Under the pieces are notes generated by a model. That model saw only the letters and a list, made by a program, of their open reading frames with translations, had not been told where the DNA came from and did not search any database. A program made the translations under genes and the position numbers. Positions 20,728 through 35,922 of a stretch of 64,000 nucleotides of DNA are shown here, piece by piece. This DNA comes from Pedobacter helvus (GTDB taxonomy: Bacteria; Bacteroidota; Bacteroidia; Sphingobacteriales; Sphingobacteriaceae): the NCBI RefSeq assembly GCF_005925325.1, contig NZ_SRMP01000001.1, positions 806,001 through 870,000 on the forward strand, read 5' to 3'. Within the stretch, counting starts at the first letter, position 1. Every line of letters begins with the position of its first letter.

Positions 20728-20813
20728 CTAGAAATCAATTAGTTATAAATTATTTAATTTTTCTTTTAGGGATAACCCTGAATTAAGTGACTTCATTTAT
20801 ATAACCAAATATT

Positions 20814-21830
20814 ATGAGCAAAACATCTTTTTTAAATTTGCTTAGTAGATATCAATCTAACACCTGTACAGAAACCGAAAGGAAAATGGTTGAGGAGTGG
20901 TATGATATGCTCGGTCAGGATTATGACCAACAGCTTTCTGATACGGAACTTAATGCCATGCACAATCGCATTTGGAAAAATGTTACTCCACAAGAAAAAA
21001 CTTTAAAACTTTCACGATGGAAATACATCGGCGTAGCTGCTTCTGTAGCTATACTAATCGTTAGTAGTGTATTATTATTCAATTACAATAACAGCGAGCG
21101 CTATTTCAAGGAGGCTGTTTCGTATGCTTCTTTATCAACGTATAAAAACAATACAGCTAAAACCGTAGAGATTGTATTGAGCGATCAATCTGTAGTGACA
21201 CTAAACCCTGGAGCATCCATCGATTATCCGAACCATTTTGCTGGTGCTAAAAGAGAGGTTTTTTTAAGCGGCGATGCTTTCTTCAAAATTTCGCACAACC
21301 CTAAAAAGCCTTTTTACGTACACAACAAGGAAATCATTGTAAAAGTTTTGGGAACCAGCTTTTACGTAAAAGAAACATCAAAATCTGCAGAAGTTGCTGT
21401 AAAAAACGGAAAGGTGATGGTAAAAGAGAATATCCACGCATCTTTATTTGGACAAAAGAAGAACTATTCAAAGGTGCTAATTACAGCTAACCAAATGGCA
21501 GCATTCGATACCGAAGAGAAAAAGTTACAAACTGCTATTATTGAAAAACCACTGCCATTATATGAAGCTTACGATTTACCGAAACCAGCAAACTCGATAG
21601 AAAGCCAGAGGTTTTATGATACACCGTTAGATAAAGTTTTTGAAATGATCTCTAAAACCTACGGCATCGAGATTAAGCTCAACAACGAAGGGTTAAAAAA
21701 ATGTACGTTCACTGGCGACATCAGCAATAAGGAACTGAAAGAACAACTGAGCTTGATTTGCCAAACCATCTCTGGCACCTACACTACCGAACAAACTACC
21801 ATCTATATAAAAGGCGGTACCTGCAACTAA
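20814..21830 (+). CDS. FecR-family anti-sigma factor with DUF4974 domain
   Basis: A 338-residue inner-membrane regulator. A cytoplasmic N-terminal segment (1-68) is followed by one transmembrane helix (about 70-89, 'YIGVAASVAILIVSSVLLF'). The periplasmic FecR domain (about 112-207, 'VVTLNPGASIDYP', 'VFLSGDAFFKISHNPKKPFYV', 'VKVLGTSFYVKE') and a C-terminal DUF4974 domain (about 264-336, 'RFYDTPLDKVFEMISKTYGIEI') follow. It should hold the ECF factor inactive until the receptor's STN domain signals that substrate is bound. It starts 86 bases after the sigma gene. Confidence 0.93.
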   Translation: MSKTSFLNLLSRYQSNTCTETERKMVEEWYDMLGQDYDQQLSDTELNAMHNRIWKNVTPQEKTLKLSRWKYIGVAASVAILIVSSVLLFNYNNSERYFKEAVSYASLSTYKNNTAKTVEIVLSDQSVVTLNPGASIDYPNHFAGAKREVFLSGDAFFKISHNPKKPFYVHNKEIIVKVLGTSFYVKETSKSAEVAVKNGKVMVKENIHASLFGQKKNYSKVLITANQMAAFDTEEKKLQTAIIEKPLPLYEAYDLPKPANSIESQRFYDTPLDKVFEMISKTYGIEIKLNNEGLKKCTFTGDISNKELKEQLSLICQTISGTYTTEQTTIYIKGGTCN

Positions 21831-21952
21831 AAAACAAAACAATAACCAAATACTAACCTTTTAATTATGAACCACAAAATTTCACAAAACTCCTCCTAGG
21901 CTAATAAATCGACTACTTTCCGATTATTTAATTAAATGATATTATACAAAAA

Positions 21953-21979
21953 AACCGACAATGGTGGGCATTGCCGGTT
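21953..21979. promoter_or_regulatory. Leader hairpin upstream of the TonB receptor gene
   Basis: AACCGACAATG (21953-21963) pairs with CATTGCCGGTT (21969-21979) with one mismatch around a five-base loop. It has an A-run before it and no T-run after it, so it is not a plus-strand terminator. It lies in the 222-base gap between the fecR-like and receptor genes and could be part of the receptor mRNA leader. Confidence 0.4.
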
Positions 21980-22052
21980 CAGCACAAGTACTAATATCAT
22001 GCGTATTTTTTATGCCCGAAATTTCTCTTTAACGAACACAAAAAACTAAGTT

Positions 22053-25013
22053 ATGAAAAAAAATGAAATTATTTCATTAGCTAAACTTGCTATGCGGATT
22101 TCTTTATATCAATTCTTAATATTAACCATCTTTTCTTTTGCTGCATCGGCCTATAATGTGAAGGCTCAGGGCGCTTTAGATAAGCAGGTGACGCTTTCCG
22201 CAAAAAATCAGAACATTAAATCTATTATTGATAAAATTGAACTATTAACCAGCGTTAAATTTGTCTACAGCCCCAAATCAATTGATGCATTAAGAAAAAT
22301 ATCTGTTAATGCGAACAAACAAAAACTAGGAGATTTATTAAATGATTATTTAGAGCCTCACGATGTGGGATTTAAAGTAGTGGATGATAGAATTTTACTA
22401 TATTCTATCAGCGCTGCAAAAGAAAATGGCTTAATTCTACCAAGACCAGAAATGCGCAGAGACGGCGTAATTACCGGAACGGTTACTGATGGCAAAGGTG
22501 GACCTATTGTGGGTGCAAGTGTGCAAATAAAAGGCACAATTACTGGTGCTACAACAGATGCTAATGGTAAATTCGTAATCAAAAAGCTGGAAGCTGGGAG
22601 TTATACTATTGTTGTTACTTATGTTGGTTTTATTTCTAAGGAAGTGGTTGTAGATATTAGAGACGAAAATAAAACCTTAGATATTGCCTTATCAGAAGAC
22701 AACTTACAATTAGAAGGCGTGGTAGTTACTGGTGGTGGTAATCCGAAAACTAAATTAGAATCTAGTGTTGCCCTAACTTCTGTAAGTAGAAAGGATATCG
22801 TAAATCGTGCACCTCTCAACAGTACTGATTTATTGAAAGCGATCCCAGGGTTAACGGTAGAAAGTACTGGTGGTGATGGTCCGGGTAATGTTTGGGTACG
22901 TGGATTTCCGCAACAAGGTGGTTATATCTATTTAGGTATCCAAGAGGATGGTTTACCATTATTGCCTACAGGTTTCAATACTAACCCTTCTGTAGATCAA
23001 TACTACAAAACCGACCTTACTATACAAAACATAGAGGCAATTAGAGGTGGTAATGCATCCATCATCCAATACAACACACCTGGTGCGGTGGTAAATAACT
23101 TAAGCTACACTGGTGCCGACAAACAGTATGGTTCATTTAAGTTTACTTCTGGTTTCTCTCAAGGTCTCTACCGTTTTGATGGTAACACTGGTGGAGCTAT
23201 CAGCGAGAATGTTAAATATAATATCGGAGGTTTTTATAGAACAGACCAAGGTGTGGTAGATCCGGGTTACAGCCCTGCTAACGTAGGTGGACAAGTAAAA
23301 GGTAACATCACCTTTGGTTTTAAAAACAAAAAAGGATTTGTGAGGGTTTACGGTAAATACTTAAATGATATTACGCAATTTCTATTGACCAGCTATTATC
23401 CTTACGATGGTACAGGTAAACCAACCACCTATAAAGGATTTGATATGGTAACCATGTCTATGTCGCCAATAGATACAAAATGGGCATTTACCGATCAATA
23501 TAGCGGCAACAGCTACAACTTCAACCTAGAACAAGGCATGCATACCAAATTGGGATCAGGTGCTGTGCAGTTCAATTACACCACCGATAATGGCTGGAGA
23601 ATAAACAATACCTTTAAATACCAAAAAACGTCTACCGATGCAAATTACTCGGCACCAAATGGTATTGCAGCTCGTGCAGCGGCTACACAATATTATTATA
23701 TAGATGGTACTCCTGCTCCATTTGCTGCGAGCGATCAAGTAATCACTACTGCTTCTAATGCTCAACTAAATCGCGATGTACAAATTGTGAATTACCTAGA
23801 TTTCAAAAAACAGGTGAAAGACCATGCTCTATTTTTCGGTACAGGTATCCATCAATACAATAGAGACGATTTACGTTATGCTTTCAGGACACAATCTGAA
23901 TTCAAAGAAAATCCACGCTTGTTAGTTACTACAGCTACACCTACAACAGCTAACGGCAGAACGGTTCAAACCAAAACTACGGTAATCGGTGATACTCGTG
24001 CCCTGTCTTTATATGGTGGTGATGAATGGAAAATTTCAGAGAAATTGAGATTAGATTTGGGTGTACGTTTAGACAATCAAAATGTGGATGGCAAAAGACC
24101 TTACTACGGCGTATTGGCCAACGGAAGCCCTAACATTAATGCGGCTTCGTCACCTAACATCTTAGGCTATACAGATTACAACATCACTACAACAAATTGG
24201 GCAGCTTCAATTGGTGCCAATTATAAAGTTAGCCCAACGGCAAGTACTTTCCTAAGAATTACTAAAGCCTATAACATGCCAAACATTGGTGACTACAATG
24301 CTTCTGCATACAACCCAGATAATATCAAAAGTCGTCCGGTATATTTAGCAGAAGTAGGCTACAAATACGCTAAAAATAATCTAGGTATTTTTGCTTCTGG
24401 AAGTTACTCAGCTATCAAAAATGCTTCGTTAACCATCAATGTACCAACTACAGCAGCAGGTTTACAATCACTAATTGCATTTGGTTCTACTAGAACATGG
24501 AGTGCCGAGTGGGAGATTTCTTATAAAGTAGTTAAACCGTTAACATTAAGATGGACTGGTACAGTACAAGACTCTAGGTACACTGATTATTCGGCACCTA
24601 CCAGCAGAAATGCAGCAGTAGCAGCACAATATGGAGATAGAGTATATAGTTTCACTGGTAACAGAACTGAGCGTGTACCTTCGTTGAACTCTGAACTATC
24701 TGGAACACTTGATATCCAGAAATTCAATCTGTTCGTATCTACCAATTATGTAGGCAACAGATTTACCTCTCCAGCAGAAAGCTACAAATTACCAGCTTAC
24801 GTGGTGATGAAAGCTGGCGCTGGCTATAACTTCACTAAAACATTATCAGTGAGAGTTTGGGCCGATAACTTAACCAATGCTAGGGTATTAACCGAAGGTG
24901 ATGTTAGAGGAGATCAATTCCGAGACTTCGCCAACGTGGCTCCTGGTACGTTAATGATTGGTAGAACCTTATTACAAAGAACGTTCTTCGGATCTTTAGC
25001 TTATTCCTTCTAG
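22053..25013 (+). CDS. TonB-dependent receptor with STN signalling domain (FecA-like)
   Basis: A 986-residue outer-membrane receptor. The signal peptide ends near residue 39 ('YNVKAQG'). An STN domain (about 45-120, 'QNIKSIIDKIELLTSVKFVYSP') receives the signal for the FecR/ECF pair; a carboxypeptidase-regulatory-like domain (about 140-225), a TonB plug (about 228-345, 'LKAIPGLTVESTGGDGPGNV', 'DLTIQNIEAIRGGNASII') and a barrel ending 'FFGSLAYSF' follow. Unlike the SusC protein earlier in the window it has no SusD partner and its plug is of the siderophore/FecA kind, so it may import a small solute (a chelate, or a glycoside) rather than a polymer. The neighbouring sugar-oxidation genes favour a sugar derivative, but this is inference. 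Confidence 0.93.
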   Translation: MKKNEIISLAKLAMRISLYQFLILTIFSFAASAYNVKAQGALDKQVTLSAKNQNIKSIIDKIELLTSVKFVYSPKSIDALRKISVNANKQKLGDLLNDYLEPHDVGFKVVDDRILLYSISAAKENGLILPRPEMRRDGVITGTVTDGKGGPIVGASVQIKGTITGATTDANGKFVIKKLEAGSYTIVVTYVGFISKEVVVDIRDENKTLDIALSEDNLQLEGVVVTGGGNPKTKLESSVALTSVSRKDIVNRAPLNSTDLLKAIPGLTVESTGGDGPGNVWVRGFPQQGGYIYLGIQEDGLPLLPTGFNTNPSVDQYYKTDLTIQNIEAIRGGNASIIQYNTPGAVVNNLSYTGADKQYGSFKFTSGFSQGLYRFDGNTGGAISENVKYNIGGFYRTDQGVVDPGYSPANVGGQVKGNITFGFKNKKGFVRVYGKYLNDITQFLLTSYYPYDGTGKPTTYKGFDMVTMSMSPIDTKWAFTDQYSGNSYNFNLEQGMHTKLGSGAVQFNYTTDNGWRINNTFKYQKTSTDANYSAPNGIAARAAATQYYYIDGTPAPFAASDQVITTASNAQLNRDVQIVNYLDFKKQVKDHALFFGTGIHQYNRDDLRYAFRTQSEFKENPRLLVTTATPTTANGRTVQTKTTVIGDTRALSLYGGDEWKISEKLRLDLGVRLDNQNVDGKRPYYGVLANGSPNINAASSPNILGYTDYNITTTNWAASIGANYKVSPTASTFLRITKAYNMPNIGDYNASAYNPDNIKSRPVYLAEVGYKYAKNNLGIFASGSYSAIKNASLTINVPTTAAGLQSLIAFGSTRTWSAEWEISYKVVKPLTLRWTGTVQDSRYTDYSAPTSRNAAVAAQYGDRVYSFTGNRTERVPSLNSELSGTLDIQKFNLFVSTNYVGNRFTSPAESYKLPAYVVMKAGAGYNFTKTLSVRVWADNLTNARVLTEGDVRGDQFRDFANVAPGTLMIGRTLLQRTFFGSLAYSF

Positions 25014-25031
25014 TTATATTTTTTAAAGCAT

Positions 25032-25059
25032 GGCCGAGCCTCAAAGTTCGGCCTTTTTT
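25032..25059 (+). terminator. Intrinsic terminator after the TonB receptor gene
   Basis: GGCCGA (25032-25037) pairs with TCGGCC (25048-25053), followed by six T. It lies 19 bases beyond the receptor stop codon and only 13 bases before the next ATG, so the following isomerase gene is reached by read-through or a promoter inside this gap. Confidence 0.8.
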
Positions 25060-25072
25060 AACTCCACACATC

Positions 25073-25975
25073 ATGACTTCGAGAAGAGATTTTATTAAAA
25101 AATCGAGTATCGGCTTTGCCGGACTTTTGATTACACCTTCCCTATTTAACAACATATTATTAGATAATAAGCAAGATATTGGCATTCAGCTGTTCACCGT
25201 TCGCGACCAGCTAAACCAAGATGTAAAACTTACGTTTAAAAAAATTGCAGATATAGGTTTTAAACAAGTAGAAACTTTTTATGGCTATGGCGATAAGATG
25301 TCGGGCAAAGGTTTTTGGGGCCTAGACGCTAAAGAGTTAGCGCAATTATTGAAAACTTACGGTCTAAAATCAACTAGCGGTCATTACAACACTACCCAAT
25401 ATCTTACCGACGGCAATACCGAAATCCTCAAACAACAAATAGAAGTAGCCAATACACTTTCACAAAAATTTTATACCATACCAGCAATGGCGCCAAATGT
25501 AAGGCAGAACGGAACTGTTGATGGTTATAAAAAGATGGCAGAGCTTTTCAATAAAGCTGGAGAGTTGTGCAAAAGCAATGGTATCACTTTAGCTTACCAC
25601 AACCATGCTTTTGAGTTTGTACCTCTAGAAAATAAACAAACTGGGTTCGAAATCCTCCTCAAAGAAACTGATGTAAAACTGGTAAAATTTGAGCTAGATA
25701 TTTTTTGGGTAGTCAATGCTAAAGTTGATCCGATTACGTTATTTAAAGAGAACCAAGGCCGCTTTGCGATGTGGCATGTGAAGGATATGGATAAAACCGA
25801 CAACAAAGTTTTCACAGAAGTTGGCACCGGCCGAATTGATTATCAAACCATCTTTGAAAACAGAAAACTAGCCGGCAATAAATTCATCTTTGTAGAACAA
25901 GATGTAATTAAAATAGATCCTTTTGACAGCATAGCTCAAAGTTTCAGATATGTAAAGCAAAATTTATTGAAATAA
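25073..25975 (+). CDS. TIM-barrel sugar phosphate isomerase/epimerase-like protein with Tat-type leader (paralogue A)
   Basis: A 300-residue protein of the xylose-isomerase-like TIM-barrel (AP-endonuclease 2) family. The leader 'TSRRDFIKKSSIGFAGLL' has the twin-arginine pattern, so it is likely exported. The barrel shows 'IGIQLFTVRDQL', 'YHNHAFEFVPL', 'VKFELDIFWVV' and 'MWHVKDMDKTDN', whose His, Glu and Asp residues typically bind a metal. It is clearly paralogous to the protein at 35041-35922, and the two bracket the cluster. Some family members were recently linked to processing of 3-keto sugars (hydration of the enol product); that activity is a suggestion here. Confidence 0.85.
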   Translation: MTSRRDFIKKSSIGFAGLLITPSLFNNILLDNKQDIGIQLFTVRDQLNQDVKLTFKKIADIGFKQVETFYGYGDKMSGKGFWGLDAKELAQLLKTYGLKSTSGHYNTTQYLTDGNTEILKQQIEVANTLSQKFYTIPAMAPNVRQNGTVDGYKKMAELFNKAGELCKSNGITLAYHNHAFEFVPLENKQTGFEILLKETDVKLVKFELDIFWVVNAKVDPITLFKENQGRFAMWHVKDMDKTDNKVFTEVGTGRIDYQTIFENRKLAGNKFIFVEQDVIKIDPFDSIAQSFRYVKQNLLK

Positions 25976-26259
25976 AAAAATATTTCGAAGTATTACGTCT
26001 TAAAATGTATTTTTAACAAAAAAGAAACAAAACGAAGCACTACATCAATACTAAACCGGCCATTTTATGTAAGTTTTTGTGAAGTAAAGGTTTGCAGTGG
26101 TTTTATTTTTTGACTTTAACAGTTGCCAAAATAGTTCGAAATTGATGTTAATATTGTACCAAAATTGTAACAAGTATTGATATCATAATTTTAATTCCTA
26201 TTATTACGTAAATTTAAATAGTGTAAAAAACACACTTAGAAACCAAAATATACCAGTAT

Positions 26260-26844
26260 ATGGACAGAAGATCAGCACTCAGAAATGTAGCCATCCTTTT
26301 AGGAACTGCTATTTCTGCCGGAACAACGGATATCTTGTTCAGCAGTTATACGTTACCAGAAAGTGAAAAAAATGCAGTTAATTTTTCTGCGGAACAGTTA
26401 AAAGCATTAACGGAAATTGCGGACGTGATTATCCCTACCACCAAATCGTCACCTGGCGCAAAAGCAGCGGGTGTAGGTAAGTTTATTCCTATGATGGTGA
26501 GAGATTGTTATCCTGCAAAACAGCAACAATCATTCTACAACGGATTGGCAGCTTTCGAAGCCAGAGCAAAAAAGACCTACAAAAAAAGCTTTGCTTTAAT
26601 TCCTTTGGTAGAGCGCAAGAAAATGTTAACTACACTTAGGCAGGAAACTTTAGATCAGAAAACGAATAAAATTCCGGAGAAAGCAGACCTTACTTATTTC
26701 TTTACTGTGGTGAGAGATCTTACTTCTTTAGGTTATTTTGCTTCAGAAATTGGATGTACACAAGCTCGCGAATACCTAATGATCCCTGGTCGTTACGATG
26801 GTGCTTATCCGCTTAAGCCGGGACAAAAATCTTGGGCTACCTAA
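26260..26844 (+). CDS. Gluconate 2-dehydrogenase subunit 3-like protein (small subunit of a GMC dehydrogenase)
   Basis: A 194-residue protein of the Gluconate_2-dh3 family (PF13618 type). The leader 'MDRRSALRNVAILLGTAISAG' looks like a Tat signal, needed because the FAD-loaded partner is exported with it. Family features are 'LKALTEIADVIIPTTKSSPGAKAAGVGKFIPMMVRDCY' and the end 'REYLMIPGRYDGAYPLKPGQ'. It should form a complex with the GMC oxidoreductase encoded 35 bases later, as in glucoside 3-dehydrogenase and gluconate dehydrogenase complexes. It is preceded by 284 AT-rich bases in which I see no clear element, probably holding the operon promoter. Confidence 0.9.
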   Translation: MDRRSALRNVAILLGTAISAGTTDILFSSYTLPESEKNAVNFSAEQLKALTEIADVIIPTTKSSPGAKAAGVGKFIPMMVRDCYPAKQQQSFYNGLAAFEARAKKTYKKSFALIPLVERKKMLTTLRQETLDQKTNKIPEKADLTYFFTVVRDLTSLGYFASEIGCTQAREYLMIPGRYDGAYPLKPGQKSWAT

Positions 26845-26879
26845 ACAAACCTTTCCCTAAACAAAACAGAACAAACAGA

Positions 26880-28583
26880 ATGAACTTAAATATAAATCTA
26901 AAAGCCGAAAATACTTACGATGCGATTGTAGTAGGCTCGGGTATAAGTGGCGGTTGGGCTGCTAAAGAACTAACCGAAAAAGGTTTAAAAGTATTAATGC
27001 TAGAAAGAGGGATGAACATTGAGCACATCAAAGATTATGATGGCGCCATGAAAAACCCTTGGGATGTTAAACACGCAGGCAGGTTAACCGAGGAGATGAA
27101 AAGAACTCACCCTGTGCAAAAAAGAGATTACCCATACAATGAAGTAACCGAAAAATGGTGGGTAAACGATTTGGAATGTCCATATACAGAAGTAAAAAGA
27201 TTTGACTGGTATAGAGGTTTTCACGTTGGTGGAAAATCATTGATGTGGGGACGTCAAAGCTACCGTTTCGGAGATGTTAACTTCGAAGAAAATTCAAAAG
27301 ATGGCTACGGTAACGACTGGCCTATCAGATATAAAGATTTAGCTCCTTGGTACGATTATACTGAGAAATTTGCAGGTATCAGTGGACAGAACGAAGGTTT
27401 AGAAGGTATTTTACCAGATGGCCAGTTTCTTCCTCCGATGGATTTAAACATCGTAGAGAAATCTGTGAAAGAAAGCATCAAACAAAAATGGGGTAACGAG
27501 CGCTTATTGACTATCGGTCGTGTGGCCAATTTAACGGTACCTCACAACGGTCGTGGCAATTGCCAATATCGTAATTTATGCAGCCGTGGTTGTCCGTTTG
27601 GCGCTTATTTCAGTACGCAATCATCTACCCTACCAGCGGCAGTTGAAACTGGAAACTTAACCTTAAGACCATACTCTATCGTAAACCACATCATCTACGA
27701 TAAAGACACTAAAAAAGCAAAAGGCGTAGCCGTAATTGATGCTTTGACTAATAAAACGATGGAGTTTTATGCTAAAATCGTTTTCGTTAATGGTTCAACT
27801 TTAGGTACTACTTTCATTTTATTAAACTCAACTTCAGACGAGCATCCTAATGGTCTAGGTAATGGCAGCGGACAGTTGGGCCACAACTTGATGGATCACC
27901 ATTTCCGTTGCGGAGCTAATGGCGAGTTTGAAGGCTTTGAGAAGTTTTATACCTACGGTAGACGTGCGAACGGCTTCTATATTCCTCGTTTCAGAAACGT
28001 AGGCAGCGATAAACGCGATTACTTAAGAGGGTTCGGTTACCAAGGAAGTGCGTCGAGACAAAACTGGCAAAGTGATGTAGCCGAATTAGCATTTGGTGCA
28101 GACTTTAAACAGAAAATGACTACTCCTGGTCCGTGGAAAATGGGTATGGGAGGTTTTGGTGAAATGTTGCCTTACTACGAAAACCGTGCTTATATCGACC
28201 ATTCGAAAAAAGATAAATGGGGACAATCGGTATTGGCTATCGACTGTGAATACAAAGAGAACGAGAAAAAAATGCGTCAGGATATGATGAACGACGCTGC
28301 CGAAATGCTTGAAGCTGCAGGTGCCAAAAACATCAAAACTTACGATAACGACTGCTATCCTGGTATGGCTATCCACGAAATGGGCACCGCAAGAATGGGT
28401 AAAGACCCTAAAACTTCGGTACTTAACGAATGGAACCAAATGCACGAAGTGAAAAACGTTTTTGTTACCGACGGTGCTTGTATGCCATCTATTGGTTGCC
28501 AAAACCCTTCGTTAACATTTATGGCTTTAACAGCTCGTGCAGCAGATTTTGCAGTAAAAGAATTGAAAAAAGGAAACCTTTAG
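26880..28583 (+). CDS. GMC-family FAD oxidoreductase, candidate glucoside 3-dehydrogenase catalytic subunit
   Basis: A 567-residue flavoprotein. The FAD-binding motif 'VVGSGISGGWAAKEL' is near residue 18. The Cys-rich loop 'NCQYRNLCSRGCPFGAY' has Cys228, Cys234 and Cys238, as in gluconate- and glucoside-dehydrogenase subunits. The catalytic pair is His499 ('AIHEMGTARMG') and Asn542 ('CQNPSLTFMALT'). It probably oxidises a sugar hydroxyl and passes electrons to a cytochrome c. With the small subunit and the cytochrome c at 31053 it matches the three-part glucoside 3-dehydrogenase set known from Agrobacterium and relatives, but gluconate or another polyol remains possible. The start at 26880 is chosen; an upstream frame overlapping the previous gene adds only 16 residues of no family likeness. 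Confidence 0.88.
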   Translation: MNLNINLKAENTYDAIVVGSGISGGWAAKELTEKGLKVLMLERGMNIEHIKDYDGAMKNPWDVKHAGRLTEEMKRTHPVQKRDYPYNEVTEKWWVNDLECPYTEVKRFDWYRGFHVGGKSLMWGRQSYRFGDVNFEENSKDGYGNDWPIRYKDLAPWYDYTEKFAGISGQNEGLEGILPDGQFLPPMDLNIVEKSVKESIKQKWGNERLLTIGRVANLTVPHNGRGNCQYRNLCSRGCPFGAYFSTQSSTLPAAVETGNLTLRPYSIVNHIIYDKDTKKAKGVAVIDALTNKTMEFYAKIVFVNGSTLGTTFILLNSTSDEHPNGLGNGSGQLGHNLMDHHFRCGANGEFEGFEKFYTYGRRANGFYIPRFRNVGSDKRDYLRGFGYQGSASRQNWQSDVAELAFGADFKQKMTTPGPWKMGMGGFGEMLPYYENRAYIDHSKKDKWGQSVLAIDCEYKENEKKMRQDMMNDAAEMLEAAGAKNIKTYDNDCYPGMAIHEMGTARMGKDPKTSVLNEWNQMHEVKNVFVTDGACMPSIGCQNPSLTFMALTARAADFAVKELKKGNL

Positions 28584-28664
28584 AATTTTAAGTGGTACGT
28601 TATAAGTTTTAAGTGGTGCTATTCAACGTATAACTTATTACTTATAACCTACAACCTTCGAAAT

Positions 28665-29822
28665 ATGAAAGAAAAAATAAGAATGGGCATGATAGGCGGC
28701 GGCAAAGATGCATTCATCGGAGCTGTTCACCGTATTGCCGCCAATATGGATGGGTTAATTGAACTTTGCTGTGGCGCATTGAGCATTAATCCAGAAACTG
28801 CAATAGAATCAGGCAAACTGTTGTTTCTTCCTGAAGACAGAACTTATCTGAGCTACGAAGAAATGATCAAAAAAGAAAGTGAGCTTCCAGAGAATGAAAG
28901 AATTCACTTTATAACTATTGTTACACCAAACTTTGCTCACTTTGCGCCTGCAATGATGGCTTTAGAGCATGGCTTTAACGTAGTAATAGAAAAACCGATG
29001 ACTTTAACTTTAGAAGAAGCAAAATTGCTACAACAAAAAGTGGAAGAAACTGGTCTTACTTTGTGCCTTACGCACACTTATTCGGGGTATCCGATGGTGA
29101 AACAAGCCAAAGAAATGGTGAAGGACGGTGTTTTAGGAAAGATTAGAAAAATCATTGTAGAATATCCACAAGGTTGGTTAAGCACACTGAGTGAAAGAGA
29201 AGGAAATGCACAGGCAGCATGGCGTACAGATCCTAAAAAATCTGGAAAAAGTGGTTGTATTGGTGATATTGGCACCCACGCTGCACATTTAGCTGAATAT
29301 ATCTCTGGTTTAAAAATCACTCAAATTTGTGCAGATTTAAATATCGTTGTAGAGGGTAGAAACATTGATGATGATGGCAACATCTTGTTGAAATTCGATA
29401 ATGGCGCAAACGGCGTTTTAATTGCATCGCAAATTGCTGCTGGCGAAGAAAATGCGCTTAACATCAGAATTTACGGTGAAAAAGGAGGATTAGAGTGGTT
29501 CCAACACGAGCCAAATACTTTGCTAGTAAAATGGTTAAACAAACCTACCGAAATCTACAGAGCTGGTAACGGTTATTTAGGCGATTTTGCAAAACATAAC
29601 ACCAGAACTCCAGGTGGCCACCCAGAGGGATTGCTAGAGGCCTTTGCAAATATTTACAGAAACTTCGCATTAACTTTAGCAGCAAAGCTGAACAATGAAG
29701 AGCCTACGCCTCAAATGTTAGATTTCCCTAACGTTTACGATGGTGTAAGAGGTATGGCGCTAATTGAAAATGCGGTGGCATCCAACGAATCGGATAAGAA
29801 ATGGCATGATTTTATAGTGTAA
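28665..29822 (+). CDS. Gfo/Idh/MocA-family oxidoreductase, cytoplasmic
   Basis: A 385-residue NAD(P)-dependent sugar dehydrogenase of the Gfo/Idh/MocA family. The Rossmann start is 'RMGMIGGGKDAFIGAVHR' and the family motif 'VVIEKPMTLTLEEA' carries the EKP lysine. The C-terminal alpha/beta domain contains 'GKSGCIGDIGTHAAHLAEY', where the catalytic Asp/His lie. There is no signal peptide, so it works in the cytoplasm. It likely interconverts a keto sugar and a hydroxy sugar, for instance reducing 3-keto-glucose to glucose or the reverse. It is followed by an isomerase gene, a common pairing. Confidence 0.88.
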   Translation: MKEKIRMGMIGGGKDAFIGAVHRIAANMDGLIELCCGALSINPETAIESGKLLFLPEDRTYLSYEEMIKKESELPENERIHFITIVTPNFAHFAPAMMALEHGFNVVIEKPMTLTLEEAKLLQQKVEETGLTLCLTHTYSGYPMVKQAKEMVKDGVLGKIRKIIVEYPQGWLSTLSEREGNAQAAWRTDPKKSGKSGCIGDIGTHAAHLAEYISGLKITQICADLNIVVEGRNIDDDGNILLKFDNGANGVLIASQIAAGEENALNIRIYGEKGGLEWFQHEPNTLLVKWLNKPTEIYRAGNGYLGDFAKHNTRTPGGHPEGLLEAFANIYRNFALTLAAKLNNEEPTPQMLDFPNVYDGVRGMALIENAVASNESDKKWHDFIV

Positions 29823-29936
29823 ACTTTAGCAACTAGCATATAGTTGATGGCTCATGGTTGATAACCTATATTGAATAATGGCTACAGTCATAAACTATCA
29901 ACTATGAACCACAAGCAATCAACCTAAAAACAAAAA
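29823..29936. repeat. Intergenic spacer with 'TAGTTGAT / ATCAACTA' inverted repeats
   Basis: 'TATAGTTGATGG' near 29840 is mirrored by 'CATAAACTATCAACTA' near 29888-29903, and 'GGCTCATGGTTGATAACC' lies between. Similar words occur at 1195-1225 and 1660-1730. It is a degenerate dispersed element between two cluster genes; no promoter is obvious. Confidence 0.45.
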
Positions 29937-30989
29937 ATGACTACAATACAAGGACCTGCAGTATTTCTAGCACAATTTATCAGTGATGAAGCACCTTTCA
30001 ATTCTTTAGATTCGATTTGTAAATGGGCTGCTGACTTAGGTTTTAAAGGTATCCAAATGCCAACCCTAGACAGTCGCTTTATTGATTTGAAACTAGCAGC
30101 AGAAAGTAAAACCTATGCTGATGAATTGACTGGAAGAGTAGCTGCTCACGGTTTGCAAATCACCGAACTTTCTACACACCTACAAGGTCAATTGGTAGCA
30201 GTTCATCCAGCTTATAACGAATTGTTCGACGCTTTTGCAGCACCAGAAGTAAAAAATATTCCAAAAGCACGTACAGAATGGGCTATACAACAATTGAAAT
30301 ATGCAGCCAAAGCATCCCAAAACTTGGGATTAAATGCGCATGCAACATTTAGTGGCTCGCTGTTATGGCAATTTTTCCATCCTTGGCCGCAACGCCCTGA
30401 CGGTTTGGTTGACGAAGCTTTTACAGAGCTGGCTAAACGTTGGTTACCAATATTAAATGAATTTGATAATTGTGGTGTAGATGTTTGCTACGAAATTCAT
30501 CCTGGAGAAGATTTATTTGATGGTATTACCTACGAAATGTTCTTGGATAAGGTAAATCAACACCCTAGAGCTTGTTTATTGTATGATCCATCGCACTTTG
30601 TGTTGCAACAATTAGATTACATCCAATATATCGATTTATATCACGAAAGAATCAAAGCTTTCCACGTAAAAGATTCTGAATTTAATCCAACAGGAAAACA
30701 AGGAACTTTTGGTGGTTACCAAGGCTGGGCAAATCGTGCTGGCCGTTACCGTTCACCAGGCGATGGTCAAGTAGATTTTAAAACCATTTTCAGTAAACTA
30801 GCGCAATACGATTTCAAAGGCTGGGCAGTAATGGAATGGGAGTGCTGTATTAAAAACCAACAAGATGGTGCTCGCGAAGGCGCAGAATTCATCAAAAAAC
30901 ATATTATTAATGTAACTGATAAAGCATTTGATGACTTTGCGGCTGCTGGAAGTGACGCTGCCTTCAATAAAAAAATACTTGGAATTTAA
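29937..30989 (+). CDS. TIM-barrel sugar phosphate isomerase/epimerase family protein, cytoplasmic
   Basis: A 350-residue TIM-barrel protein of the xylose-isomerase-like family without any export signal. Recognisable parts are 'KWAADLGFKGIQMPTLDSRF', 'NAHATFSGSLLWQFFHPWPQ', 'VDVCYEIHPGEDLFDGITYEMFL', 'CLLYDPSHFVLQQLDYIQYI', 'IKAFHVKDSEFNPTG' and 'AVMEWECCIK', which provide the usual Glu/Asp/His metal site. It is longer than the two Tat-type paralogues in the cluster and distinct from them. It probably isomerises or hydrates the sugar product handled by the adjacent Gfo/Idh enzyme; the exact reaction cannot be read from the sequence. Confidence 0.85.
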   Translation: MTTIQGPAVFLAQFISDEAPFNSLDSICKWAADLGFKGIQMPTLDSRFIDLKLAAESKTYADELTGRVAAHGLQITELSTHLQGQLVAVHPAYNELFDAFAAPEVKNIPKARTEWAIQQLKYAAKASQNLGLNAHATFSGSLLWQFFHPWPQRPDGLVDEAFTELAKRWLPILNEFDNCGVDVCYEIHPGEDLFDGITYEMFLDKVNQHPRACLLYDPSHFVLQQLDYIQYIDLYHERIKAFHVKDSEFNPTGKQGTFGGYQGWANRAGRYRSPGDGQVDFKTIFSKLAQYDFKGWAVMEWECCIKNQQDGAREGAEFIKKHIINVTDKAFDDFAAAGSDAAFNKKILGI

Positions 30990-31052
30990 AGGTCTCCACT
31001 TTTGACTTTCGACTTTTTACTTTTAACTTAATACCCCTAATACAAAACACAT

Positions 31053-31445
31053 ATGAAACGAACTTTTTTAATTCTTGGAGTAACTTCAATATTTGTTGCT
31101 TCATTATCAGCATTTAAACCAGAGCCAAAAACAGAACCTGCAGTAACTATTAATACACCGGCAATGCCTAAAATAGCAACCATGCAAATGAGCGGTGGCG
31201 AGTTGTTAATCAATAAATCTGACTGTATTGGCTGCCACCACAAAATCAATAAATTAATTGGCCCATCTTACACAGATATTGCTAAGAAATATCCTAATAC
31301 AGATAAAAACCAACTTCTATTAGCTGAGAAGATCATCAAAGGTGGATCTGGCGTTTGGGGTAAAATCCCAATGACACCACATCCAAAAATTTCGCAAGGT
31401 GATGCAAAGTTGATGGCAAAATATATCCTTTCGTTAAAAAAATAA
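31053..31445 (+). CDS. Class I c-type cytochrome, periplasmic
   Basis: A 130-residue exported mono-haem cytochrome c. The signal peptide is about 1-20 ('LILGVTSIFVASLSA'). The haem site is C58-I-G-C61-H62 and the distal ligand is probably Met107 in 'GKIPMTPHP'. 'GPSYTDIAKKYP' and 'GGSGVWGKIPM' are typical of cytochromes of the c551/c552 kind. Encoded between sugar oxidoreductase genes, it is a natural electron acceptor for the GMC dehydrogenase encoded 2.5 kb upstream. Only 25 bases separate it from the following gene. Confidence 0.92.
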   Translation: MKRTFLILGVTSIFVASLSAFKPEPKTEPAVTINTPAMPKIATMQMSGGELLINKSDCIGCHHKINKLIGPSYTDIAKKYPNTDKNQLLLAEKIIKGGSGVWGKIPMTPHPKISQGDAKLMAKYILSLKK

Positions 31446-31470
31446 CTGACCCCTTCCTAAACCAAAATAT

Positions 31471-32919
31471 ATGAACCAAGACAACAACCAAAGCAGACGT
31501 AACTTCCTCAAAATGGGAGCTGTTGCAACTGCTGCATTTACCATTGTCCCTCGTCACGTTTTAGGTGGCAAGGGATTTCTTGCACCAAGCGATAGGCTAA
31601 TTGTAGCTGGTATTGGTGTAGGTGGCAAAGGAGATAGCGATTTGCGTTTAATCCACGAAAGTGGTAAAGCAGAAATCGCTTATTTATGCGATGTAGACAC
31701 AAGAAGAGCAGCTAATAGCGTGAAACGTTTCCCTAAAGCTAAGTTCTATAAAGACTGGCGTGAAATGTTTGACAAAGAGCACAAGCATTTTGATGCGGTT
31801 ACGGTGTCTACTCCAGATCATAACCACGCTATCCAAACCTTAGCTGCAATGCAATTGCGTAAGCATGTTTACGTTCAAAAGCCATTAACTCACGATATTT
31901 ACGAAGCCCGCATCTTAACCGCAGCAGCGAAGAAATATAAAGTGGTAACGCAAATGGGTAATCAAGGTGCTAGTAATGATGGCCCTCGTTTATTACGTGA
32001 GTGGTATGATGCTGGTTTAATTGGTGATGTTCATACCATTTATGCTTGGACAGACAGACCAGTTTGGCCTCAAGGTATTCCTTGGTCGGCAAATAAAGCG
32101 GAAGTTCCTAAAGATTTAGATTGGGATTTATGGTTAGGCACCGCTCCTTACAAAGATTACGTTGAGAAACTAGTTCCTTTCAACTGGCGTGGTTGGTGGG
32201 ATTACGGAACTGGTGCTCTGGGCGATATGGGTTGTCACTTATTGGAAACTCCTTTTAGCGTACTTAATTTGAAATATGCTACAGAAGTTGAAGCTAGTGT
32301 TGGTTCGGTTTATGTGGATGAGTTTAAACGTGGATATTTCCCTGAAAGCTGCCCTCCTTCTAGTCATGTAACCTTAAAATTCCCTAAAACAGATAAAACG
32401 CAGGGCGAAGTTACCGTTCACTGGATGGATGGTGGTATTCAACCTACTCGTCCAGAAGAATTAGGTGCTGACGAAGTATTTGGCGATGGTGGTAACGGAA
32501 CATTGTTTATTGGTACCAAAGGCAAAATGATGTCTAATACCTATGGCGATAAAGCGAGGTTGATTCCACTTTCTCGCAACGAGAATTTAAATGTGGCTCA
32601 AAAATTTGCTCGTGTTCCTGGTCAGGCTAATGGCCATTACGGACAATGGGTAGAAGGCTGTATCGCTGGCTACGGTAAAAAAGAACTGAGCTCTCCTTTC
32701 GAAATTGCTGGCCCTTTAACCGAGTGTTTATTAATGGCAAACTTGGCCATTAGGGCTGCTGATGTTAAGAGAATTGACGATAAAGGCAAAACAAGTTTCC
32801 CAGGCAGATACAGAAAACTACTTTGGGATAACGACCAAATGAAGGTAACCAACTTCGACGATGTGAACCAATTTGTGAAGAGAGATTATCGCGAAGGCTG
32901 GAAATTAGGAGAGAAATAG
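31471..32919 (+). CDS. Gfo/Idh/MocA-family oxidoreductase with Tat signal, periplasmic
   Basis: A 482-residue oxidoreductase with a clear twin-arginine leader ('QSRRNFLKMGAVATAAFTIV'), so it is exported with its nucleotide cofactor bound. The Rossmann domain starts at 'LIVAGIGVGGKGDSDLRL'; 'TVSTPDHNHAIQTLAAM' and 'HVYVQKPLTHDIYEARIL' carry the family's catalytic lysine motif (QKP in place of EKP, usual for this subgroup). The C-terminal domain has 'WWDYGTGALGDMGCHLLETP'. Exported members of this subgroup in Bacteroidota include glycosidases and sugar oxidoreductases working with a tightly held NAD. Here it may oxidise or epimerise a glycoside at C3. Confidence 0.88.
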   Translation: MNQDNNQSRRNFLKMGAVATAAFTIVPRHVLGGKGFLAPSDRLIVAGIGVGGKGDSDLRLIHESGKAEIAYLCDVDTRRAANSVKRFPKAKFYKDWREMFDKEHKHFDAVTVSTPDHNHAIQTLAAMQLRKHVYVQKPLTHDIYEARILTAAAKKYKVVTQMGNQGASNDGPRLLREWYDAGLIGDVHTIYAWTDRPVWPQGIPWSANKAEVPKDLDWDLWLGTAPYKDYVEKLVPFNWRGWWDYGTGALGDMGCHLLETPFSVLNLKYATEVEASVGSVYVDEFKRGYFPESCPPSSHVTLKFPKTDKTQGEVTVHWMDGGIQPTRPEELGADEVFGDGGNGTLFIGTKGKMMSNTYGDKARLIPLSRNENLNVAQKFARVPGQANGHYGQWVEGCIAGYGKKELSSPFEIAGPLTECLLMANLAIRAADVKRIDDKGKTSFPGRYRKLLWDNDQMKVTNFDDVNQFVKRDYREGWKLGEK

Positions 32920-32926
32920 TTATCAC

Positions 32927-32952
32927 GTCATTCCCGCGTAGGCGGGAATCTT
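32927..32952. repeat. REP-like hairpin ATTCCCGC / GCGGGAAT
   Basis: ATTCCCGC (32930-32937) and GCGGGAAT (32942-32949) form a perfect 8-bp stem with loop GTAG. The sequence around it, 'CGTCATTCCCGCG', is a widespread bacterial REP type. It lies between the Tat-type oxidoreductase and the DUF1080 gene and may protect or reduce the downstream transcript. Confidence 0.75.
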
Positions 32953-32988
32953 AAAGCGTTAAACGGGAATTATCAGAAATAATAATAG

Positions 32989-33669
32989 ATGAAAAAAATA
33001 TTAATAGCAGCATTTATGGTTGCTTCAATTAGTGCTAATGCACAAAAGAAAAAAGGCTTCACTCCTCTTTTCGATGGTAAAACCACTACAGGTTGGCACA
33101 CCTACGGAAAAAACTTTGTAGGCAAAGCTTGGAACGCAGAAAATGGCGTACTGCACTTCGACCCAAAATTGAAAAATAAAGATGGCGGCGATTTAGTAAC
33201 CGATAAAGAATATGGTAACTTTCATTTAAAACTAGAATGGAAAGTAGCTCCTAAAGCCAATAGCGGTATCATTTTCTTCGTACACGAAGACCCTGCAAAA
33301 TATAAGCAAACCTATCTCACTGGTCCAGAAATGCAGGTGATCGACAACGACGGTCATCCGGATGGAAAAATCACTAAACACCGTGCTGGTGATTTGTACG
33401 ACATGGTTAAAAGCAAAAGCGAGCCTGTAAAAGCAGTTGGCGAGTGGAATTTGGCAGAAATTATAAGCAATAATGGCAAGCTTACTCTTAAGCTAAATGG
33501 TAAGAAAATTGTAGAAACCACCATGTGGGATGACAACTGGAAAAACCTAATCGCAGGAAGCAAGTTTGCCAAATGGGAAGGTTTTGGAACTTACAAAACA
33601 GGCAAAATTGCTCTACAAGATCATGGCGATGAAGTTTGGTTCCGTAACATAGAGATTAAAGAATTATAA
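32989..33669 (+). CDS. DUF1080 / 3-keto-disaccharide hydrolase (lyase) family protein, exported
   Basis: A 226-residue protein with a signal peptide (about 1-18, 'VASISANAQ') and a single concanavalin-like DUF1080 domain (PF06439, '3-keto-disaccharide hydrolase'): 'FTPLFDGKTTTGWHTYGK', 'GDLVTDKEYGNFHLKLEWKV', 'ANSGIIFFVHED', 'GPEMQVIDNDGHPDG' and 'GKIALQDHGDEVWFRNIEI'. The family cleaves glycosides that have been oxidised at C3, and recent work on gut Bacteroides treats some members as elimination-type lyases. This gene is the strongest pointer that the cluster handles 3-keto glycosides. Confidence 0.88.
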   Translation: MKKILIAAFMVASISANAQKKKGFTPLFDGKTTTGWHTYGKNFVGKAWNAENGVLHFDPKLKNKDGGDLVTDKEYGNFHLKLEWKVAPKANSGIIFFVHEDPAKYKQTYLTGPEMQVIDNDGHPDGKITKHRAGDLYDMVKSKSEPVKAVGEWNLAEIISNNGKLTLKLNGKKIVETTMWDDNWKNLIAGSKFAKWEGFGTYKTGKIALQDHGDEVWFRNIEIKEL

Positions 33670-33758
33670 AATAGGGATCGGGAATTAGTGGTCAGGTATT
33701 AGTACAATACGCTGACCAAAAAACTAACATAATCCAAAAGAATCAACCCCAAGTGCAT

Positions 33759-33798
33759 TTCTCTCCCTTTTTCGGAGAGATACCAAAGGCAGAGAGGG
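33759..33798 (-). repeat. Dispersed element, family B copy 1 (inverted)
   Basis: Read on the minus strand this is CCCTCTCTGCC, a short spacer, ATCTCTCCG, then AAAGGGAGAGAAA, the same order as at 43158-43199 and 51341-51382. The inner CTCTCC/GGAGAG words form a hairpin. It lies in front of the MFS transporter gene. Confidence 0.75.
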
Positions 33799-33819
33799 GC
33801 TCTAAAACCAAAAAACTAA

Positions 33820-35034
33820 ATGAACTCAACAACTCGCTTCAAGTTATCCTTTATGATGTTCCTCGAATTCTTTATTTGGGGTGGATGGTTTGTAACTATG
33901 GGTACTTACCTAACTAAAAATCTTTCTGCTGATGGTGTTCAAATCGGTTCAGCATATAGTACCCAGTCTCTTGGCGCTATTATAGCTCCTTTTATCATAG
34001 GTCTAATTGCCGACAAGTTTTTTGCAGCTCAAAAAATCCTTGGCTTTTTACACATTGCTGGAGGTATTTTACTATGGTTCGCTTCAACTTCCCTGAATTT
34101 TGATGCTTTTTTCCCATTCATTTTAGGATACATGATTGCTTTCATGCCAACATTAGCATTAGTAAATTCCATTTCTTTCAAACAGCTTAAAAACCCTGGA
34201 AAAGAATTCCCTTCAATTAGAGTATTTGGGACTATTGGATGGATTGTAGCTGGTTTAGTGATAGGATGGTTGAATTGGGAGCAAGATGGAAATCTTATAC
34301 TTACATTTAAAATGGCATCTGTAGCCTCATTACTGTTAGGTGTATTTAGTTTTGCATTACCTAATACACCACCAGTTAAAAAAGGCGAAAAAACTTCTTT
34401 TGGAGATATAATTGGATTAGATGCAATAGGCTTGCTGAAAAACAGGTCATATCTACTGTTCTTCATAGCTTCTGTTGCTATTTGTATACCATTAGCTTTT
34501 TATTACAATTTCACTAATCCATTTCTTAACGAAGTTGGAATGAAGGCTGCAGCAGGTAAACAATCGCTGGGTCAAGTGTCAGAAACATTATTTATGTTGC
34601 TAATGCCATTCTTTTTTGTTCGTTTAGGGGTGAAAAAAATGTTAGCTATTGGTATGATTGCTTGGGTAGTCCGCTATTTATTCTTCGCATTTGGCAACGC
34701 AGACAGCAATTATTGGATGTTAATTGGTGGTATAATTTTACACGGTATTTGCTACGATTTCTTTTTTGTTACTGGACAAATTTATACAGACAGGTTGGCT
34801 GGAGAAAAATTCAAGAGTGCCGCACAAGGTTTCATTACATTAGCTACTTACGGAGTTGGAATGTTATTCGGTTCAATTATATCAGGTATCGTGGTTGATA
34901 AATATGTGATAGACGGAGGCCATAACTGGTACAATATCTGGATCATCCCTGCCGCGATAGCTGCCGTAGTTGCATTTTTGTTTTTACTGTTTTTTAGAGA
35001 CGATAATAAATCAGCTGTGGCTGAACAACAATAA
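33820..35034 (+). CDS. MFS transporter, nucleoside:H+ symporter (NupG)-like
   Basis: A 404-residue inner-membrane protein with about twelve hydrophobic segments. The start 'LSFMMFLEFFIWGGWFVTMGTYL' and 'APFIIGLIADKFFAAQKILGFLH' are typical of the nucleoside:proton symporter family. Members in Bacteroidota sit beside sugar isomerase and Gfo/Idh genes and probably carry sugars rather than nucleosides. It most likely imports the monosaccharide or keto-sugar product from the periplasm. It ends six bases before the next gene, so the two are co-transcribed. Confidence 0.88.
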   Translation: MNSTTRFKLSFMMFLEFFIWGGWFVTMGTYLTKNLSADGVQIGSAYSTQSLGAIIAPFIIGLIADKFFAAQKILGFLHIAGGILLWFASTSLNFDAFFPFILGYMIAFMPTLALVNSISFKQLKNPGKEFPSIRVFGTIGWIVAGLVIGWLNWEQDGNLILTFKMASVASLLLGVFSFALPNTPPVKKGEKTSFGDIIGLDAIGLLKNRSYLLFFIASVAICIPLAFYYNFTNPFLNEVGMKAAAGKQSLGQVSETLFMLLMPFFFVRLGVKKMLAIGMIAWVVRYLFFAFGNADSNYWMLIGGIILHGICYDFFFVTGQIYTDRLAGEKFKSAAQGFITLATYGVGMLFGSIISGIVVDKYVIDGGHNWYNIWIIPAAIAAVVAFLFLLFFRDDNKSAVAEQQ

Positions 35035-35040
35035 TTTGAT

Positions 35041-35922
35041 ATGACTACAAGAAGAAATTTTATAAAAGAAACAGGCTTATTAGCTGCAAGTTTAGCCTTA
35101 GCCCCTTCGTTGACTAAAGCTTTTGCCCCTGCCCAACGTGCTGTTGGCATACAACTTTACAGCTTGAGAGACATTATTGGCAAGGATGTAAAAGGCGTAA
35201 TTGAGAAAGTTGCCAAAGCGGGTTTTAAAGAAGTGGAAACTTATGGCTACGCACCAAATGGAAGTTTCTGGGGATTAAGTCCTAAAGATTTTAAAGCCTT
35301 ATTAGATACTAATGGTTTATACTCTCCAAGTGGTCACTTTAGTTTCGACAATTATATTTCAACTGGGAATTTAGATGATATCAAGTCATACATTGATGCT
35401 TCGAATGTTTTAGGAAGTAAGTACGTTGTTGCGCCTTGGTTAAGTGAAAACTTACGCAAAACCACTGACGACTATAAAAAAGTGGCGGAGCGATTGAATA
35501 AAGCCGGTGAACTTTGTATCCAGGCAGGTATCAATGTTGGTTATCATAATCACGGTTTCGAGTTCGATAAACATGTTGATACTACAGGTTTCGAAATCTT
35601 GTTAGCTGAAACAGATCCAAATTTAGTTTACTTCGAGTTGGATTTATATTGGGCTGTTTTTGCAGGTCATAATCCAGTAGATATCTTTAAAAAACATCCT
35701 CGCAGATTTAAAATGTGGCATGTAAAAGATATGGATAAAACTAAAAAGACTTGGAACACGGAAGTTGGTAACGGCAGCATCGATTTCAAATCGATATTTG
35801 CACAGGCAAAACTATCTGGTGTAAAACATATCTATTTAGAGCAAGAAACCAACTACAAGCCAGATCAAATTGGCTCAATCAAAACAAGCATCGACTACAT
35901 TAAAGGTAGCTTGTTGAAATAA
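35041..35922 (+). CDS. TIM-barrel sugar phosphate isomerase/epimerase-like protein with Tat-type leader (paralogue B)
   Basis: A 293-residue protein with a twin-arginine-like leader ('TTRRNFIKETGLLAASLAL'). The barrel repeats paralogue A at 25073-25975 segment by segment: 'VGIQLYSLRDIIGKDVK', 'GFKEVETYGYAPNG', 'FWGLSPKDFKALLDTNGL', 'YHNHGFEFDK', 'FELDLYWAV' and 'MWHVKDMDKTKK'. Its Glu/Asp/His set suggests a metal-dependent enzyme acting in the periplasm. Both paralogues could hydrate or isomerise the product of the DUF1080 enzyme, on two different sugars. It is the last gene of the cluster; a family A palindrome follows five bases after the stop. Confidence 0.86.
   Translation: MTTRRNFIKETGLLAASLALAPSLTKAFAPAQRAVGIQLYSLRDIIGKDVKGVIEKVAKAGFKEVETYGYAPNGSFWGLSPKDFKALLDTNGLYSPSGHFSFDNYISTGNLDDIKSYIDASNVLGSKYVVAPWLSENLRKTTDDYKKVAERLNKAGELCIQAGINVGYHNHGFEFDKHVDTTGFEILLAETDPNLVYFELDLYWAVFAGHNPVDIFKKHPRRFKMWHVKDMDKTKKTWNTEVGNGSIDFKSIFAQAKLSGVKHIYLEQETNYKPDQIGSIKTSIDYIKGSLLK

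What the first reader, a model, noticed from the sequence alone, without database searches (positions are those of the whole stretch)
25073..35922. Ten-gene cluster that may be a complete periplasmic sugar C3-oxidation (3-keto-glycoside) pathway
Within 11 kb on one strand are a Gluconate_2-dh3 small subunit, a GMC dehydrogenase with the Cys loop of glucoside/gluconate dehydrogenases, a mono-haem cytochrome c, a Tat-exported Gfo/Idh enzyme, a cytoplasmic Gfo/Idh enzyme, a DUF1080 3-keto-disaccharide hydrolase/lyase, three TIM-barrel isomerase-type proteins (two Tat-exported) and an MFS transporter. Known chemistry of these families fits oxidation at C3, cleavage or elimination, hydration, import and reduction. 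Both a cytochrome-linked and an NAD-linked oxidant are present, which is an unusual redundancy. The assignment of each step is inference.
Basis: partly seen in the sequence, partly recalled or inferred. Interest (0 to 1): 0.8.

Follow-up and report, generated by a model that had tools for sequence, protein, structure and literature searches.

The report
Bacterial sugar-cutting operon by oxidation-elimination
This is a Pedobacter operon that most likely frees glucose from sugar conjugates by oxidising, splitting, re-hydrating and reducing the sugar ring instead of hydrolysing it; the pathway type is already known, and the points worth testing are that two different oxidising enzymes sit together in it and that the work seems divided between two cell compartments.

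Summary
In detail: ten same-strand genes at 25073-35922 have the stated families. The middle TIM barrel is an orthologue of the solved 2-hydroxy-3-keto-glucal hydratase (E 6.6e-165). The two Tat-exported barrels keep both histidines mutated in the Agrobacterium beta-eliminase. The DUF1080 protein matches a 3-keto-glycoside eliminase/hydratase. The GMC protein keeps the cysteine spacing of FAD-sugar dehydrogenases. The route looks split, not wholly periplasmic: hydratase and reductase show no export leader. The core is nine genes, in order in 63 of 70 named loci, including Flavobacterium saccharophilum; the first barrel goes with a variable sigma/FecR/TonB-receptor cassette. The double oxidant is conserved: GMC and Tat-Gfo lie within 12 kb in 74 of 88 family genomes listed with both, and this Tat-Gfo scores below the BT2158-family cut-off. 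Its role beside the GMC enzyme is open.

The parts
20164..25013 (+). sig-fecR-TBDR cassette: ECF sigma factor (20164-20727), FecR anti-sigma (20814-21830), TonB-dependent receptor (22053-25013); no SusD found
   Evidence: receptor in 13 of 73 named loci with >=6.5 kb upstream, in all 13 with T1; place
25073..25975 (+). T1: Tat-exported TIM barrel, probable 3-keto-glycoside beta-eliminase; goes with the TBDR cassette
   Evidence: 8tcd, 8bvk; His aligned with AtOGE H134 and H189 invariant; T1 in 14 of 73 loci, 13 of them with the receptor
26260..26844 (+). S: Gluconate_2-dh3 small subunit with Tat signal (LacC type)
   Evidence: PF13618 126 bits; RR in the first 45 residues of 115 of 116 distinct homologues
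26880..28583 (+). G: GMC/FAD sugar 3-dehydrogenase (LacA type), no leader of its own, C-x5-C-x3-C loop
   Evidence: fructose and glucose dehydrogenase subunits; motif in 118 of 118 distinct homologues
28665..29822 (+). R: Gfo/Idh without leader, probable cytoplasmic 3-keto-glucose reductase
   Evidence: 3v5n, E 9.2e-104; next to H in Hymenobacter 61% and Sphingobium 42%
29937..30989 (+). H: TIM barrel without leader, 2-hydroxy-3-keto-glucal hydratase
   Evidence: (8ro4, E 6.6e-165 over the whole length)
31053..31445 (+). C: exported mono-haem cytochrome c (LacB type), probable electron acceptor of G
   Evidence: exactly one CxxCH in 82 of 82 distinct homologues
31471..32919 (+). D: Tat-exported Gfo/Idh related to glycoside 3-dehydrogenase BT2158; GMC-linked subfamily with QKP motif
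   Evidence: NF058561 478 bits, cut-off 750; 8tdf, E 6.5e-96
32989..33669 (+). K: exported DUF1080 (PF06439), 3-keto-glycoside eliminase/hydratase
33820..35034 (+). M: MFS transporter, PF03825, probable importer of the glycal or 3-keto-sugar
   Evidence: 392 bits; a permease stands next to H and R in Hymenobacter (71% to M) and Sphingobium (30%) plasmids
35041..35922 (+). T3: Tat-exported TIM barrel, probable 3-keto-glycoside beta-eliminase
   Evidence: YHNH and HxKD in 107 of 107 distinct homologues

Best explanation
The nine-gene operon S-G-R-H-C-D-K-M-T3 (plus T1) encodes a non-hydrolytic glycoside-utilisation pathway. In the periplasm the GMC flavoenzyme G, exported with the Tat-signal small subunit S, oxidises C3 of a glucosyl residue and passes electrons through an FeS cluster to cytochrome c (C). 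The Tat-exported lyases T1/T3 (probably beta-glycosides) and DUF1080 K (probably alpha-glycosides; recalled) eliminate the aglycone, leaving 2-hydroxy-3-keto-glucal. M carries this glycal, or 3-keto-glucose, into the cytoplasm, where H adds water and R reduces 3-keto-glucose to glucose with NAD(P)H. D, a Tat-exported Gfo/Idh enzyme, is a second C3 redox enzyme; as free NAD is not expected in the periplasm, it may keep its cofactor bound and exchange hydride between sugars, with G-C as the net electron outlet. Shown: gene content, families, leaders, active-site residues, conservation. Inferred from homologues: steps of G, T, K, H, R. Inference only: cargo of M, exact partition between compartments, role of D, natural substrate.
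Against: No enzyme of this locus has been assayed. C3 regiospecificity cannot be read from sequence; the solved relatives of G oxidise other positions (recalled) and are distant. D fails the BT_2158_fam cut-off (478 of 750 bits), its model was too poor to use (pLDDT 57), and no GFOR or AAOR chain came up for D at E<=1e-3, though they did for R: hydride exchange by D has no sequence support beyond the superfamily. In Pedobacter GW460 none of ten DUF1080 genes had a lactose phenotype, put down to possible redundancy; in B. thetaiotaomicron single BT2157 or BT2158 deletions grew normally on raffinose-family sugars. A Sphingomonas plasmid locus with much of the same content has no D-like match at E<=1e-60, so D is not needed for the basic chemistry. 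7 of 70 named loci lack part of the order. T3 lacks RR in 4 of 107 distinct homologues.
Confidence: 0.82

Rival explanations
1. Price et al. version: the DUF1080 protein hydrolyses the 3-keto-disaccharide in the periplasm; transporter, 'epimerases' and reductase then handle a free 3-keto-hexose.
For: PMC9007349 section 10; Pfam name of PF06439.
Against: Relatives of K are titled eliminase/hydratase and one is solved with the glycal; the 'epimerase' H is a glycal hydratase orthologue; T1/T3 keep the AtOGE histidines. Elimination plus hydration by K alone would look like hydrolysis, so the two versions overlap.
Confidence: 0.2
2. The GMC complex is a gluconate/aldose (C1 or C2) dehydrogenase and the TIM barrels are true sugar or inosose isomerases.
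For: Pfam name Gluconate_2-dh3; weak IolE hits; 8tcd/8tcs/8tct are labelled isomerase or TIM barrel in the PDB field.
Against: IolE hits are 53-63 bits against a cut-off of 290; H is a full-length hydratase orthologue; the cytochrome has one haem site (multi-haem cytochromes of gluconate 2-dehydrogenase are recalled); fixed neighbourhood with DUF1080 and eliminase-like lyases.
Confidence: 0.05
3. D is simply a second, independent C3 dehydrogenase with a different substrate range (BT2158-like), not a partner of G.
For: Long matches to 8tdf/8tdh and to the glycoside 3-dehydrogenase model; 14 of 88 family genomes listed with both do not show G and D within 12 kb.
Against: The 74 D copies near a listed G are all of the >=700-bit class (74 of 98); 0 of 25 weaker homologues lie near a listed G; D is rare on plasmids where G is common (6 against 138 records at E<=1e-60). 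Linkage does not prove a shared reaction.
Confidence: 0.45

Closest known systems
LacABC/DUF1080 loci of Caulobacter, Indibacter, Algoriphagus and Halomonas, with fitness data for a Pedobacter GW460 lactose dehydrogenase (PMC9007349, section 10 read)
   Same: LacABC dehydrogenase near DUF1080; [quoted passage not shown] Bacteroidota members already named
   Different: That text proposes hydrolysis and leaves the 3-keto-sugar fate open; it does not mention a Tat-exported Gfo/Idh (the figure itself was not seen)
Agrobacterium tumefaciens GlycDH/AtOGE/AtHYD/Gfo operon (PMC10628242, section 7 and passages)
   Same: Same four chemical steps; H is an orthologue of a solved hydratase of that name; T1/T3 keep AtOGE histidines
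   Different: Here also D, DUF1080, cytochrome c and an MFS carrier; the lyases carry Tat signals
Bacteroides thetaiotaomicron BT2156-BT2160 operon (PMC11300592, PMC12385236, PMC11501099 passages)
   Same: BT2157-like DUF1080 (3osd is BT2157), BT2158-like Gfo/Idh; BT2156 as a TIM barrel is recalled
   Different: Here a GMC-cytochrome oxidant is present, and D is a QKP subfamily below the BT2158 cut-off
Glucose-fructose and aldose-aldose oxidoreductases (GFOR/AAOR; PMC4628093 passages)
   Same: Exported Gfo/Idh enzymes acting on two sugars at once: the model proposed for D
   Different: No GFOR/AAOR chain matched D at E<=1e-3; bound cofactor not tested

Membership tests
LacABC-type sugar 3-dehydrogenase | GMC subunit, Tat-signal Gluconate_2-dh3 subunit and mono-haem cytochrome c in one operon | tested here: met
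   (operon from spacing only)
LacABC-type sugar 3-dehydrogenase | FeS cysteine triad C-x5-C-x3-C as in FAD-GDH/FDH (ligand role recalled) | tested here: met
   (118 of 118 distinct homologues)
LacABC-type sugar 3-dehydrogenase | oxidises C3 of glycosides | not testable with these tools
   needs enzyme assay
PF06439 3-keto-glycoside eliminase/hydratase | domain above gathering score and same fold as solved members | tested here: met
   (174 of 26.8 bits)
2-hydroxy-3-keto-glucal hydratase (8ro4) | full-length match | tested here: met
O-glycoside beta-eliminase AtOGE family | His134 and His189 equivalents | tested here: met
   (motifs in 107 of 107 distinct T3, 16 of 16 distinct T1)
BT_2158_fam glycoside 3-dehydrogenase (NF058561) | score above curated cut-off 750 bits | tested here: not met
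   478 bits
GFOR/AAOR-like redox-neutral oxidoreductase | tightly bound NAD(P) and hydride exchange between two sugars | not testable with these tools
   model of D too poor; no sequence match of D to these chains at E<=1e-3
SusC/SusD polysaccharide utilisation locus | SusC above cut-off with a SusD partner | tested here: not met
   97 of 368 bits; no SusD among the 20 proteins scanned
IolE inosose dehydratase | score above cut-off 290 bits | tested here: not met
   53, 63 and 57 bits for T1, H and T3

The most novel reading that the evidence does not exclude
D is a periplasmic, cofactor-bound 3-keto-sugar exchanger dedicated to the GMC-cytochrome dehydrogenase: it oxidises fresh glycoside while reducing 3-keto-glucose to glucose, so that G-C needs only to prime the pool. 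One aerobic locus would then join the Bacteroides (NAD) and Proteobacteria (cytochrome) versions of the pathway into a two-compartment cycle with the glycal as the traded intermediate.
Probability: 0.2. Interest if true: 0.6.

Novelty: new member of a known kind. Interest (0 to 1): 0.36.

Why it matters
It supplies step-by-step gene assignments, with a likely compartment for each, for a pathway in which published work left the fate of the 3-keto-sugar open. It recasts the 'two oxidants' oddity as a recurrent pairing worth testing. It also points to likely genes of the sugar-oxidising system of Flavobacterium saccharophilum, the organism in which (recalled) glucoside 3-dehydrogenase and its cytochrome c551 were purified in the 1980s, and which was used to make valienamine from validamycin A (passages).

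Tried and rejected
Structure of D: predicted from 17 sequences, pLDDT 57, not used. The fingerprint of the recalled Ca-dependent 3-ketovalidoxylamine lyase (36 kDa, 5 His, 0 Cys; all from memory) was compared with the four DUF1080 proteins of F. saccharophilum DSM 1811: none fits all three values, so no assignment is claimed; the TIM-barrel lyases were not compared. TBDR as part of the sugar operon: linkage to T1 supports it, but a terminator-like hairpin lies between them at 25032-25053; the scan as a whole found 7 such sites against 8.9 in shuffles, so this is weak either way. Promoter scan uninformative (31 against 28.7 in shuffles). SusC/D locus, IolE and gluconate dehydrogenase readings rejected as in the membership table and rivals. 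GC content of the cluster (38.6%) is like that of the window (37.7%): no sign of recent foreign origin. Whether the GMC/Tat-Gfo pairing is already in print was not settled: the listings of ten library searches showed no paper on it, but few were aimed at it, and two likely papers (Nature 2024, Angewandte 2024; contents recalled) are not held.
Full report
Observation. I use short names: T1 25073-25975, S 26260-26844, G 26880-28583, R 28665-29822, H 29937-30989, C 31053-31445, D 31471-32919, K 32989-33669, M 33820-35034, T3 35041-35922. Gaps are 6-150 bp except 284 bp before S. The GMC gene probably starts at ATG 26880. The window lies in a 4.6 Mb genome. G is 98% identical to a Pedobacter ureilyticus protein; the genome G105, of the window's genus, has G on a contig of the same length as that species' record (249754 bases), so the window's genus is that of P. 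ureilyticus. The Pedobacter xixiisoli locus L081 has the same order, upstream cassette included.

Compartments. RR occurs in the first 45 residues of S (115 of 116 distinct), D (94 of 94), T1 (16 of 16) and T3 (103 of 107). A hydrophobic N-terminal stretch (a plain hydropathy rule, not a signal-peptide predictor) is found in 79 of 82 distinct C and 78 of 84 K, but in 1 of 88 H, 1 of 90 R and 0 of 118 G; G is expected to travel with S (inference). The genome has TatC. So oxidation and elimination would be periplasmic, hydration and reduction cytoplasmic, with M importing the glycal or keto-sugar.

Conservation. The seven others are L106, L124, L129, L147, L150, L153 and L155. C was found in 60 of 70; ORFs under 90 residues were not searched, so this is a lower bound. 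An extra Tat-type TIM barrel (X, 293-297 aa in the loci) lies between M and T3 in 56 of 66 such loci but not in the window. Flavobacterium saccharophilum DSM 1811 (L114) has the whole order and only one match to G at E<=1e-3. That this species is the classical source of glucoside 3-dehydrogenase and cytochrome c551 is recalled; the papers were not seen, and the strain used then may differ.

Upstream cassette. T1 occurs in 14 of 73 loci with at least 6.5 kb upstream; 13 of these also have the TonB receptor, and none of the 73 has the receptor without T1 (the exception is L127). In near relatives the same gap holds other genes: a GDSL lipase in L037 and a 713-aa protein in L038. The receptor is below the SusC cut-off (97 of 368 bits).

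Two oxidants. In 121 family genomes G is found in 92 (E<=1e-60) and D in 90 (E<=1e-80). From the printed match rows, which list G in 91 genomes, 88 have both, and in 74 of these G and D start within 12 kb; the other 14 are farther apart or on different contigs. The rows for G were cut, so 74 is a lower bound. Of D matches of 700 bits or more, 74 of 98 lie near a listed G; of weaker ones, 0 of 25. In 296 phylum genomes (E<=1e-100) G is in 85, D in 75, both in 69 (Fisher p 3e-44, not corrected for shared descent). That E limit probably leaves out enzymes as distant as 8tdf/8tdh (E 6.5e-96 and 4.4e-93 in the PDB search). QKP stands where 8tdf has EKP in 91 of 92 distinct D of at least 60% identity. 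On plasmids, at E<=1e-60, G has 138 records, mostly Proteobacteria by the genus counts, and D six, five of them Bacteroidota and one of at least 60% identity. A Sphingomonas plasmid has cytochrome, H, TIM barrels, MFS, DUF1080, S, GMC and one annotated Gfo and is not among the six D records. So D looks like a Bacteroidota addition to a LacABC-type locus. A periplasmic Gfo/Idh without free NAD could work by hydride exchange, as GFOR and AAOR do (exported enzymes: PMC4628093 passages; bound cofactor recalled). Against this, no GFOR or AAOR chain matched D at E<=1e-3, while R did match them. Hydride exchange by D is a proposal, not a result.

Known or new. Price et al. (PMC9007349, section 10 read) describe LacABC-DUF1080 loci in Caulobacter, Halomonas, Algoriphagus and Indibacter, and fitness data for a Pedobacter GW460 dehydrogenase; I did not see their figure, nor whether that Pedobacter locus is this one. 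The Nature Communications 2023 paper (section 7 and passages) gives the four-step route. [quoted passage not shown] PMC11501099 (passage) found no growth defect on raffinose-family sugars in single BT2157 or BT2158 deletions. A Rhizobium radiobacter mono-haem cytochrome is stated to accept electrons from glucoside 3-dehydrogenase (PMC9915066 passages). The cluster is therefore a new member of a known kind. The compartment split and the GMC-linked D subfamily are the points I did not find described in what I read.

Noticed in passing
window 20164-25975: Sigma-FecR-TonB receptor-T1 cassette is present or absent between the epimerase and S genes in Pedobacter loci; other genes take the same site in some relatives.
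   Followed up: partly
L172:6019-14308 (own genome C7): Second locus with a two-domain DUF1080 protein, two Tat-type Gfo/Idh proteins (22-24% to D), an ApbE protein, a FAD_oxidored protein and a GH5-like protein: perhaps a parallel 3-keto pathway; no GMC match seen in this 20 kb stretch.
   Followed up: partly
L174:9598-11997 (own genome C5): A second GMC plus Gluconate_2-dh3 pair (32% and 26% to G and S) without the other pathway genes nearby, save a Gfo/Idh protein 26.5% identical to R.
   Followed up: no
L166 (Hymenobacter volaticus plasmid NZ_CP095062.1): GMC, small subunit, permease, Gfo, hydratase, cytochrome, TIM barrels and DUF1080 together on a plasmid; its D homologue (73%) lies elsewhere on the same plasmid.
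   Followed up: partly
L114: Flavobacterium saccharophilum DSM 1811 carries the syntenic operon with the only G-type match found in its genome.
   Followed up: partly
L054, L055, L056: In one genus of the family the S-G pair (68% G) sits among unidentified genes with no R, H, D or K match in the stretch: G may serve other pathways there.
   Followed up: no
window 36796-39402: Large lamin-tail-domain, Big_5 protein with a CHU_C type IX secretion match just below cut-off, unrelated to the operon.
   Followed up: no
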